Program-made: the position numbers and the translations under genes
Notes under the pieces: model-generated
Seen by the model: only the letters and a program-made list of their open reading frames with translations
What the model was told of the DNA's origin: nothing
Database searches by the model: none
Assembly: GCF_019343105.1 (NCBI RefSeq)
Contig: NZ_CP073764.1
Location: 2,840,001-2,904,000 of the forward strand
Length of the DNA stretch: 64,000 bases
From: Methylovirgula sp. HY1
GTDB lineage: Bacteria > Pseudomonadota > Alphaproteobacteria > Rhizobiales > Beijerinckiaceae
Reading direction: 5' to 3'
Shown here: in pieces, positions 43,692 to 46,937 of the stretch
How the letters are laid out: each line of letters starts with the position of its first letter
How positions within the stretch are numbered: the first letter of the stretch is position 1

Positions 43692-44258
43692 TCAGTCGGC
43701 GCGCCGCAGATAGGTGACTTCGCTGGTGTCGACGACAATGCGCTCGCCCGGCTCGATGAAGGGCGGGACCAGCACGCGCAGGCCATTTTCGAGCTTCGCC
43801 GGCTTGTAGGAGGAGGCGGCCGTCTGTCCGCGCACGACGGGATCGGCCTCGACCACCTGCAACACGACCTGCAGGGGAAAGCGAATGCTGATCGGCCGGC
43901 CTTCATGCATCTGCAAGGTGACCTTCATGCCGTCTTGCAAAAAGGCGGCGCGCTCGCCGACCCAATCCTTGGCGAGATCGATCTGCTCATAGCTTTCGAG
44001 ATCCATGAAGACGAGACTGTCGCCCTCGGCATAGAGAAAGCTGAAATCCTTCAGCTCGAGCTCGACCACCTCGACCGTTTCATCGGCGCGAAAACGCTCG
44101 TTGAGCTTGCGGCCGTCGATCAGGTTTTTCAATTCGACCTGATTGAAAGCGCCGCCTTTGCCGGGCTTCACACTATTCGTCTTCACCGCGACCCAGAGGC
44201 CGCCCTGATGTTCGATGACAGCGCCGGGGGTGATTTGGTTTCCGTTGATTTTGGGCAT
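43692..44258 (-). CDS. efp: Elongation factor P
   Basis: This encodes 188 residues, the standard length. The KOW-like N-terminus [27 protein letters not shown], the modification loop [15 protein letters not shown] (lysine at the conserved tip) and the C-terminal OB domains ([29 protein letters not shown]) are complete. EF-P rescues ribosomes stalled at polyproline. No EpmA/EpmB genes are in the window, so the modification state is unknown. Confidence 0.96.
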
Positions 44259-44597
44259 GGGGAGGTTTTTGGGCCGGGAGGCTGGGAAGAGGGATGGCGT
44301 TCATCTGCCCGCAGGGGAGGGCCGGGTCAAGGGAATTGAGCGGGGCACGCTTTCCCGGAGCCCTGAAGCCCCCGGGTCTGGCCTTCGGCCGGCCCAAGGA
44401 CAGGCCAGCCGCAGGCCCATAGCGAAAGGGCATCCGGGATCAAGCGCAATAAGTTCGCGAAGTGGCGTCATTATGCGCGTAGAGCCGCCTGTCACTTGCC
44501 CGCGAGTGCCGGGAATGCCCTGAAACACCGCGCCAAGGTAGTCATGGAAATCAATACCCTGAATATGCTATAATTTATTTTGTGAAAGGAAAGGCTT
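44259..44597. other. Intergenic region, 339 bp, at the edge of the accessory patch
   Basis: The first 180 bp are GC-rich and contain the small inverted repeat GGCCTTCGGCC near 44381. The last 60 bp turn abruptly AT-rich and carry the promoter element at 44569. No gene is supported. Confidence 0.55.
44569..44574 (+). promoter_or_regulatory. Perfect -10 box TATAAT upstream of the MNT/HEPN module
   Basis: GCTATAATTTATT lies 24 bp before the MNT start at 44598, with GAAAGGAAAGG (ribosome binding site) between. No good -35 hexamer is seen 17 bp upstream. A sigma70 consensus box is uncommon in this GC-rich genome and fits a recently acquired module. Confidence 0.5.
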
Positions 44598-44921
44598 ATG
44601 GCCGCCGCATCCACCAACGATCCCATCCTTGCGCGTTTCCGCGCGGCGCTGACTGAAATCTACGGCGACCGCATCGAGCGCGTGGTTCTCTTTGGCTCGC
44701 GCGCGCGCGGCGACGCGCAAGCGGATTCCGATTACGACGTTGCCGTCTTTCTGAAAGAGCTTCCCGACCTTTGGAAAGAAAGACACCGCCTTGCCGATCT
44801 CCGCGTCGATTTTATCGACGACACTGGCGCATTTTTCGACACCAAGCCATTTCCCGCCGCAGCGTATCGTGACAAGACTCCCATCATGCACGAAATCCGC
44901 CGTGACGGGCTGGATTTATGA
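44598..44921 (+). CDS. MNT-domain nucleotidyltransferase (MntA/MenA-like antitoxin type)
   Basis: This encodes 107 residues. The minimal nucleotidyltransferase motif is GSRARGDAQADSDYDVAVF, with G33-S34 and metal-binding D45 and D47. Proteins of this kind pair with HEPN proteins; known MntA antitoxins modify and silence the HEPN RNase. It has GGAAAGG before the ATG and overlaps the HEPN gene as ATGA. Its lower GC and the TATAAT promoter set it apart from the flanks. Confidence 0.88.
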   Translation: MAAASTNDPILARFRAALTEIYGDRIERVVLFGSRARGDAQADSDYDVAVFLKELPDLWKERHRLADLRVDFIDDTGAFFDTKPFPAAAYRDKTPIMHEIRRDGLDL

Positions 44922-45298
44922 AGCCTGAGTCCGCCAAATTTATTGAACAAGCCAACATCTGCATCGCGCGCGCCGAAACCATGATGACGGTTCATCTTCA
45001 CGAAGACGCCGCAAGAGCCGCCTATTTTGCAAGCTTCCATGTCGCGCAAGCCTACATATTTGAGCGGACAGAGAAGACTTCAAAATCCCATAAGGGCGTA
45101 CAAACTGAATTTTTCCGTCTGTCAAAGGACGACGCGCGGGTCGATCACGACCTAAGGCGCTTCCTCTCGCAATCCTACGAATTCAAGTCCGTTGCTGACT
45201 ACTTCATGGGCGGCGAAGCGGGTACATCGGAACAGGAAGCCGCCGACGCCATAGCGACGGCGAAGCGTTTCATCGAACACTTTTCGTCGCTGGTGTAG
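44918..45298 (+). CDS. HEPN-domain protein, partner of the MNT nucleotidyltransferase
   Basis: This encodes 126 residues, all helical. AARAAYFASFHVAQAYIF and the C-terminal RRFLSQSYEFKSVADYF match the UPF0332/HEPN fold. The usual RNase motif R-x4-6-H is not evident at the R81 region, where tyrosine stands in (SQSYEF). It is therefore less clearly a nuclease than HepT. It is translationally coupled to the MNT gene. Confidence 0.85.
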   Translation: MKPESAKFIEQANICIARAETMMTVHLHEDAARAAYFASFHVAQAYIFERTEKTSKSHKGVQTEFFRLSKDDARVDHDLRRFLSQSYEFKSVADYFMGGEAGTSEQEAADAIATAKRFIEHFSSLV

Positions 45299-45361
45299 CG
45301 GCGGCGCTATATTAAACCCAATTACGGCGCTGGACCCCGGCTCTCCTTTCGCAGGAGTTTA

Positions 45362-45382
45362 TCCTCGGGCTTGCCCCGAGGA
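45362..45382. repeat. Small palindromic element TCCTCGGG-CTTGC-CCCGAGGA
   Basis: An exact 8 bp stem with a 5 nt loop lies 63 bp after the HEPN stop. Similar CCTCGGG/CCCGAGG palindromes are, from general knowledge, frequent intergenic elements in Hyphomicrobiales. It may serve as a transcript end, but no T run follows. Confidence 0.6.
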
Positions 45383-45482
45383 CTTCAGTCGGCCGGAAAC
45401 GACGGCGTCGATCCTTGACCTCATGCGAGGAGGATCGCTAAGCTTTGATATTATTGTGTCAAAGCTTTTTTATAGGCGGGAA

Positions 45483-46221
45483 ATGGCAGCCACAAAAGAA
45501 GCAATCATCGCAGATATTCGGCGCACCGCCTCGGAAAACGGCGGAGTCCCGCTCGGTCAGAATTCTTTCGAACGGGACACCGGCATTTCGGTTGCTTCTT
45601 GGCGCGGCAAATATTGGCGGACCTGGGGTGAGGCTCTGAAAGATGCCGGGTTTACTCCAAATCAGCCGAAGGAAGCTCATGATGAATTGTTTTTGATTTT
45701 AAGCTTGGCCAAGCTGACAAGAAAAAAACGGGCGCTTCCCGACCTACGCAGATGTACGAATGGAGCGGCAGGTTAACAATTCTTTCCCTGGCCACCAACC
45801 AATCACGAAGTTAGGAACACTAGCGGAGCGTATCGAACTCGTCAGGCAGTACGCGACAGATGACGCTGAATACAGTGACATTTTGGAGATATTACCGCCG
45901 GCCCAAGGGGTCGAAAGCGGGGAAGCAGCCGCCGAGCCGGCCGGAGCTCTTAAAAACGGTTACGTCTATATGGGCTTGTTGAAAATTGGTTCTGAAAAAC
46001 GCTACAAAATCGGCAAGACCAATCTCGTGGAACGCCGAAAGGATCAATTATCGATACAACTTCCCGAAGATCTCGAAATGGTGCATGCCATCAATACAGA
46101 TGATGCGTATGGAATAGAGGCCTATTGGCACCGGCGTTTTGCGGCCAAGAAGACCAAAGGCGAATGGTTCAGCCTGTCACGTGACGATGTTCAGGCATTC
46201 AAGAGGCGAAAATTTATGTGA
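45483..46221 (+). pseudogene. GIY-YIG nuclease-family gene with a frameshift at an A7 tract
   Basis: Frame 1 from the ATG at 45483 gives an N-terminal helical repeat (ENGGVPLGQNSFERDTGIS, WRGKYWRTWGEALKDAG, FLILSLAKLTRK). At the A7 run 45722-45728 the family sequence moves to another frame, where GRFPTYADVRMERQ continues in register through FPGHQPITKLGTLAERI and on to a GIY-YIG/T5orf172 domain (GYVYMGLLKIG, YKIGKTNLVERRKDQL, YWHRRFAAKKTKGEWF). Removing one A restores a single frame of 245 residues. It may be a disrupted gene, a sequencing error, or one read through by slippage. It is AT-richer than its neighbours. Confidence 0.82.
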
Positions 46222-46271
46222 TCAGCAGGTGGTGGCTTCATTGCTCCATCGAAAGAGTCCGGAGGCAGTTC

Positions 46272-46475
46272 ATGCCGTATTTAAATTCGACTGCCATTAG
46301 CCGGGTTGAATACGATCCTGACATGCGGACACTGTCGATCTGGTTCAGAGAAAGTGGAGGACCTTATTACTATTACAGGGTTCCTGAATCAGTATATCGA
46401 AACCTCCTTTGCGCGAGCTCTGCCGGGATCTATTTTAATACCTACATTCGTGATAACTATAGCAGTAAGCGGTAA
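46272..46475 (+). CDS. KTSC-domain small protein
   Basis: This encodes 67 residues from the ATG at 46272 (GGAGG seven bases upstream). The whole protein is one KTSC domain: STAISRVEYDPDMRTLSIWF, YYYYRVPESVYRNLLCASSAG, FNTYIRDNY. The domain also occurs at the C-terminus of some lysyl-tRNA synthetases; its role is not established, though an RNA/DNA-associated function is often suggested. It is probably part of the same acquired patch as the GIY-YIG gene. Confidence 0.82.
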   Translation: MPYLNSTAISRVEYDPDMRTLSIWFRESGGPYYYYRVPESVYRNLLCASSAGIYFNTYIRDNYSSKR

Positions 46476-46523
46476 TGGATATTATTTTTTAAAATAGGTG
46501 TCGTGGTTGATTCCTATCTAAAG

Positions 46524-46937
46524 TCACACCCCGCCCAGCTTGCAGATCAGCTTCCATTCCGCGTCGGTCACCGGCTGCACGGACAGTCGCGAATTATTGA
46601 CGAGCATCATGTCTTTCAGCCGCTCGTCGGCTTTAATGGCGGCCAGCGTAATGGGTGTCTTCAACGGCTTCACGGCCGCGAAATCGCACATGCCGAATTT
46701 GCCCGTCGGGTCGCTGTCATCGGGATAGTAAGTCTTGATGACTTTGACGATGCCGACGATCTCTTTGCCCTCGTTCGAATGATAGAAGAAGGCCTGTTCG
46801 CCGAGCTTCATGGCCATCAGATTCTGCTTGGCGACATGATTGCGCACGCCGTTCCAGAATGTACCCGTCTCGCCCGCGTCCACCTGCATCTGCCAGGACC
46901 ATTTGGCCGGCTCGCTCTTGATCAGCCAATGCGCCAT
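46524..46937 (-). CDS. EVE-domain protein
   Basis: This encodes 137 residues from the ATG at 46937, which yields the canonical start MAHWLIKSEP. WSWQMQVDAGETGTFWNGVRNHVAKQNL, KLGEQAFFYHSNEGKEIVGIVKV and NNSRLSVQPVTDAEW are hallmarks of EVE (PUA-like) proteins. They recognise modified bases in nucleic acids. In-frame ATGs at 46955 and 46949 are alternatives. Neighbouring gpsA and tsaD match its usual alphaproteobacterial context. Confidence 0.9.
   Translation of the reverse strand: MAHWLIKSEPAKWSWQMQVDAGETGTFWNGVRNHVAKQNLMAMKLGEQAFFYHSNEGKEIVGIVKVIKTYYPDDSDPTGKFGMCDFAAVKPLKTPITLAAIKADERLKDMMLVNNSRLSVQPVTDAEWKLICKLGGV

What the first reader, a model, noticed from the sequence alone, without database searches (positions are those of the whole stretch)
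45483..46221. GIY-YIG nuclease gene split by a one-base frameshift at an A7 run
The family-type sequence runs in frame 1 up to LTRK, then GRFPTYADVRMERQ continues in another frame after AAAAAAAC (45722-45729). Deleting one A restores one 245-residue protein with N-terminal helical repeats and a C-terminal GIY-YIG/T5orf172 domain. Homopolymer A7 tracts are hot spots for replication slippage and for transcriptional slippage, so the gene may be phase-variable or still produce some full-length protein.
Basis: partly seen in the sequence, partly recalled or inferred. Interest (0 to 1): 0.6.

Follow-up and report, generated by a model that had tools for sequence, protein, structure and literature searches.

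The report
Recently broken GIY-YIG nuclease gene
A horizontally acquired gene for a probable DNA-cutting enzyme carries one extra A in a run of A's that breaks its reading frame; the break is found only in this genome and looks like an ordinary fresh mutation, not a conserved genetic switch.

Summary
The frame opened by ATG 45483 leaves the family sequence at an A7 run (45722-45728) and stops at 45774-45776. The rest of the protein, including the whole GIY-YIG/T5orf172 domain, lies open in another frame to 46221. About 80 single-ORF homologues across many phyla show one 236-245 aa protein with two HNH-repeat/HTH-like domains plus a C-terminal GIY-YIG nuclease. None shares the frame change, and no other genome sampled in the order has a split copy (9 of 9 intact). 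A relative with the same R-K-N peptide has A6, so A7 is most simply a +1 insertion.

The downstream half has not decayed (39 of 42 conserved columns kept), so the event is recent. The gene sits in a low-GC island (MNT-HEPN, GIY-YIG, KTSC) between efp and an EVE gene. The nuclease gene is absent from all 10 congeners.

Phase variation and slippage rescue have no positive support. The tract is short and not conserved. The two commonest slips at A7 (ribosomal -1, RNA polymerase +1) both lead into the third, wrong frame. Sequencing error cannot be excluded, but no homopolymer frameshift was recognised in 316 kb of conserved coding DNA. Verdict: recent null allele of an accessory nuclease; ordinary.

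The parts
45483..45776 (+). 5' fragment of the GIY-YIG gene: 97-codon ORF; first about 80 residues are family sequence (first HNH-repeat/HTH-like domain and the first helix of the second), last about 17 residues out of frame
45722..45728 (+). A7 run at the frame change; relative L025 has A6 at the same R-K-N residues
45730..46221 (+). 3' fragment: rest of the second helical domain, linker and complete T5orf172/MUG113 GIY-YIG nuclease domain in the other frame; an internal ATG at 45760 (153 codons) overlaps the upstream stop but has no evident Shine-Dalgarno sequence
45440..45467 (+). 12-pair hairpin followed by T's, terminator-like, 15 bp before the start codon
44598..45298 (+). MNT nucleotidyltransferase (44598-44921) plus HEPN (44918-45298) pair, toxin-antitoxin-like, in the same insert
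46218..46475 (+). KTSC-domain small protein directly downstream, in the same insert
44345..46525 (+). approximate accessory insert between efp and the EVE gene; the nuclease gene is absent in all 10 congeners searched

Best explanation
This is a recent inactivating +1 frameshift, most likely one A added to an A6 run by replication slippage, in a horizontally acquired gene for a stand-alone GIY-YIG (T5orf172/MUG113 type) DNA endonuclease. Shown: the split, the intact family, the uniqueness of the split, absence of decay, and the accessory location. Inferred: the mutational route, and the product. Normal decoding yields a 97-residue protein with one complete HTH-like repeat and no nuclease domain, so the nuclease is off (a null allele or young pseudogene). 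The intact family probably binds DNA with its two helical repeats and cuts with the GIY-YIG domain, like a free-standing homing-type or restriction-like nuclease.
For: Both halves match the same family in order. About 80 homologues are single ORFs, as are all 9 other copies found in 397 genomes of the order, while this genome alone gives two pieces. Homologue L024 has the same peptide LTRKNG without an A run, and L025 has A6 at the same R-K-N residues. 55 of 59 highly conserved columns are kept, 39 of 42 after the break; this copy deviates at 4 columns against a median of 2 and a maximum of 10 in intact relatives. The nuclease gene is missing from all 10 congeners, where efp or IMPase lies next to EVE. 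GC is 51% against 61% for the window, and the nearest relatives are Myxococcales, Falkowbacteria and Comamonadaceae at 99/99 support. Other family members were broken independently at other places: L009, L066, L090.
Against: No reads or sister strains were available, so neither the A7 nor its fixation in the population could be verified. Lack of decay would also fit an error or a still-expressed gene.
Confidence: 0.72

Rival explanations
1. Sequencing or assembly error: the true tract is A6 and the gene is intact.
For: Singleton frameshifts are classed as indel mutation or sequencing error in a 1106-genome survey (PMC3711429). Downstream sequence is undecayed.
Against: In about 316 kb of conserved coding DNA of the same assembly, holding 13 A/T runs of 7 or more and 74 of six, no clear homopolymer frameshift was recognised against congener G005; the listed candidates read as gene boundaries or shadow ORFs. 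Many A7/T8 runs lie in long intact ORFs. Homopolymer errors of long reads are more often shortenings than extensions (own knowledge).
Confidence: 0.14
2. Phase variation: the tract switches between A6 (on) and A7 (off) by slipped-strand mispairing.
For: A run of A at the break; phase variation of DNA-modification genes is known (PMC3711429); no decay.
Against: A7 is common in this genome inside intact genes. The tract is not conserved: 56 of 82 homologues have a longest run of 3 in this stretch. No other copy is broken here. The gene is not a surface or modification gene.
Confidence: 0.06
3. Recoding rescue: transcriptional slippage or ribosomal frameshifting still makes some full-length enzyme.
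For: A_AAA_AAA is a shift-prone heptamer. A 14-nt palindrome (AGCTTGGCCAAGCT) lies 6 nt before the run, and stem-loop-driven loss of one base is known in a Roseiflexus IS (PMC5009743).
Against: Ribosomal -1 shift and RNA polymerase +1 insertion both enter the third frame, which stops after 28 codons. In E. coli, deletions in homopolymers are rare (3 of 921) while insertions prevail (PMC5574713). Selection against slippery runs becomes visible mostly at nine (PMC1088944). The RNA folds no better than shuffles (z 0.43, 0.18). Nothing is conserved.
Confidence: 0.04
4. Split but functional: the downstream ORF from ATG 45760 is translated by coupling and makes a nuclease-only protein.
For: ATG 45760 lies 14 nt before the upstream stop and the GIY-YIG domain is complete.
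Against: No Shine-Dalgarno sequence is seen, no relative has this split arrangement, and the DNA-binding half is lost.
Confidence: 0.04

Closest known systems
T5orf172/MUG113-type GIY-YIG putative homing endonucleases (Pfam PF10544, PF13455; phage examples in PMC10448857)
   Same: C-terminal T5orf172/MUG113 domain with conserved Tyr, Lys-Ile-Gly, Arg, His and Glu positions; repeated small DNA-binding domains in front; solo, patchily spread gene
   Different: DNA-binding part is HNH_repeat-like (PF18780), not CapR/DUF723 zinc fingers; chromosomal in many phyla; this copy is frameshifted
Homing endonuclease associated repeat (HNH_repeat, PF18780)
   Same: N-terminal repeat scores above the cut-off in the read-through protein (27.6 against 26 bits) and 37 of 46 homologues match at E 0.01
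   Different: Attached to GIY-YIG rather than HNH
Slippage-dependent genes (T. thermophilus dnaX, IS elements with A9/T9 or T5C5)
   Same: Frame change at a homopolymer
   Different: Shorter run, no conservation, wrong frame for the usual slips
Ordinary frameshift pseudogenes / singleton fs-genes (PMC3711429)
   Same: Singleton indel in an otherwise intact family
   Different: Nothing found

Membership tests
T5orf172/MUG113 GIY-YIG nuclease | Profile match above the curated cut-off | tested here: met
   58 bits against 22.3 (MUG113) and 38 against 20 (T5orf172); all 46 homologues scanned match
T5orf172/MUG113 GIY-YIG nuclease | Conserved active-site type residues present | tested here: met
   Y162, K175-I176-G177, R185, H201, E212, H216 and E227 agree with 80 relatives; role by analogy only
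T5orf172/MUG113 GIY-YIG nuclease | GIY-YIG fold | tested here: inconclusive
   Model of relative L024 (pLDDT 92) aligns to Slx1 at Z 6.3 and UvrC at Z about 4, below the clear range
T5orf172/MUG113 GIY-YIG nuclease | Uninterrupted reading frame | tested here: not met
Homing endonuclease | Cuts an allele lacking the gene and is copied into it | not testable with these tools
   No sister strain; 2 kb insert differs from congeners, but no precise target or intron was defined
Phase-variable gene by slipped-strand mispairing | Tract of variable length among strains or reads | not testable with these tools
   One genome only; no reads
Phase-variable gene by slipped-strand mispairing | Tract conserved or unusually long for the genome | tested here: not met
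Programmed frameshift / transcriptional slippage gene | Conserved shift site and split-ORF layout in homologues | tested here: not met
Programmed frameshift / transcriptional slippage gene | Common slip direction reaches the family frame | tested here: not met
   -1 ribosomal and +1 RNA shifts give the third frame with an early stop
Recent pseudogene by frameshift | Singleton break, intact homologues, little decay | tested here: met

The most novel reading that the evidence does not exclude
The A7/A6 tract is a low-rate reversible on/off switch for a free-standing GIY-YIG nuclease, or the break is partly read through so that a little full-length enzyme is still made.
Probability: 0.08. Interest if true: 0.4.

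Novelty: new member of a known kind. Interest (0 to 1): 0.15.

Why it matters
Little beyond annotation: it is a clean example of an accessory nuclease gene caught just after inactivation. The wider family (two HNH-repeat/HTH-like domains plus T5orf172 GIY-YIG, chromosomal, from proteobacteria to candidate phyla) appears without recurrent neighbours in the sampled loci; I found no functional study of it in the few literature searches made.

Tried and rejected
RNA structure as a slippage stimulator: folds of 45683-45721 and 45690-45745 are no more stable than shuffles. A 3' stimulator at 45722-45800 was also not better than shuffles (z 1.34). Plasmid relatives: none. Phage relatives: only three distant ones. 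Viral contigs: three relatives, none with the split. Exact junction in viral contigs: none. Recurrent gene neighbours in about 80 loci: none beyond scattered recombinases and regulators. NCBIfam gave nothing for the nuclease and PADLOC only weak matches. PDB by sequence found nothing solid, only Hpy188I at E 0.1. Foldseek against PDB gave no significant match. One pattern search in the window found nothing and was not used.

Full report
What is there. Reading + from ATG 45483 gives MAATKEAII...LSLAKLTRK and then 17 unrelated residues to a TAA at 45774-45776. An A7 run lies at 45722-45728, and after it another frame continues NGRFPTYADVRMERQ...KRRKFM to the stop at 46219-46221. The first piece matches Pfam HNH_repeat (PF18780); the second matches MUG113 (58 bits, cut-off 22.3) and T5orf172 (38 bits, cut-off 20), two related GIY-YIG profiles.

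The intact family. A scan of one genome per species returned 80 loci, and viral contigs three more. Nearly all are one ORF covering the query end to end at 37-52% identity. All 46 scanned homologues match MUG113 and T5orf172, and 37 match HNH_repeat. A model of the closest relative (L024, 52% identity; pLDDT 92) has two helical domains (about 1-54 and 62-136), a loose linker (about 140-148) and an alpha/beta C-terminal domain. These align, with only moderate scores, to TetR-type DNA-binding domains and to Slx1/UvrC GIY-YIG nucleases. So the normal product most likely binds DNA with two HTH-like repeats and cuts it with a GIY-YIG domain.

The break is private. Of 397 genomes of the same order, 10 carry the gene; nine are intact and only this one comes in two pieces. 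In the homologous stretch most relatives have no long run: the longest run is 3 in 56 of 82. L024 has the same peptide LTRKNG with codons that avoid the run, and L025 has A6 at the same R-K-N residues. The simplest history is one A added to an A6 run. Other family members are broken elsewhere: a frame change between the helical part and the nuclease domain in L009, stops in L066 and L090, a remnant in L007. The family is therefore lost now and then, as accessory genes are. Copies split by a frameshift would rank lower in the search, so that set under-counts broken copies; one search is less subject to that.

The break is young. At 59 columns conserved in at least 80% of 80 relatives the window sequence agrees at 55, with 39 of 42 after the break; intact relatives deviate at a median of 2 and up to 10. 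There is no second stop or shift.

Setting. The gene lies in a low-GC stretch (HEPN 53%, GIY-YIG 51%, KTSC 47%, against 61% for the window). The stretch holds an MNT/HEPN pair, this gene and a KTSC gene, between efp and an EVE-domain gene. No congener has a GIY-YIG match. In the two nearest congeners efp and EVE are separated by about 270 bp (G003) or about 800 bp with unrelated sequence (G010), and in G005 the IMPase gene lies next to EVE. The protein groups with Myxococcales, Falkowbacteria and Comamonadaceae homologues (99/99), not with the alphaproteobacterial ones. A horizontally gained accessory insert fits all of this.

Is it an assembly error? I compared 0.8 Mb of this genome with 1.2 Mb of the congener G005. 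316 kb of conserved coding DNA were aligned, with 74 A/T runs of six and 13 of seven or more, and no homopolymer frameshift was recognised. The candidates listed look like gene boundaries fused by the stop-to-stop ORFs or opposite-strand shadow ORFs, judged by eye. Runs of A7-T8 sit in long intact ORFs elsewhere. Error is possible for a single site but not suggested.

Could it switch or be rescued? The full-length frame needs one base fewer or two more. A ribosomal -1 shift on A_AAA_AAA and RNA polymerase adding one A both enter the third frame, which ends after 28 codons. In E. coli, transcript deletions inside homopolymers are rare (3 of 921 deletions), whereas insertions prevail in A/T runs (PMC5574713). 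Selection against A/T runs becomes visible mostly at nine (PMC1088944). A perfect 14-nt palindrome lies 6 nt before the run, and a nascent stem-loop that causes loss of one base is known from a Roseiflexus element (PMC5009743). Here, however, the fold is no better than shuffled sequence and nothing is conserved. In a survey of 1106 genomes, frame changes not shared by relatives were taken as mutation or error (PMC3711429). Phase variation stays possible in principle at ordinary mutation rates, but nothing here points to it.

Conclusion. Observation confirmed; phase-variation and slippage interpretation not supported. Most likely this is a recent frameshift null allele of an accessory, free-standing GIY-YIG nuclease.

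Noticed in passing
44598-45298: MNT nucleotidyltransferase and HEPN genes overlap by 4 bp; MNT matches the MntA antitoxin model (below cut-off) and a PADLOC candidate family PDC-S09 (E 1e-23). A diverged copy of the pair is in congener G010 (L021).
   Followed up: partly
45440-45467: Near-perfect hairpin AAGCTTTGATATTATTGTGTCAAAGCTT followed by T's ends 15 bp before the nuclease start codon; terminator-like for the MNT/HEPN unit or a possible operator.
   Followed up: no
45690-45727: Quasi-palindrome with the exact core AGCTTGGCCAAGCT just upstream of the A7 run; not more stable as RNA than shuffles.
   Followed up: yes
44258-46525: The efp-EVE interval holds different contents in congeners (about 270 bp in G003, unrelated sequence with a possible small gene in G010), so it may be a small insertion hot spot.
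   Followed up: partly
L009 (reverse strand, about 1424-1503): Second family copy in genome G046 is also split, between the helical part and the nuclease domain, while the first copy (L004) is intact.
   Followed up: partly
46218-46475: KTSC-domain gene with a GTG overlapping the nuclease stop (or ATG 46272) and 47% GC, the lowest in the insert.
   Followed up: no
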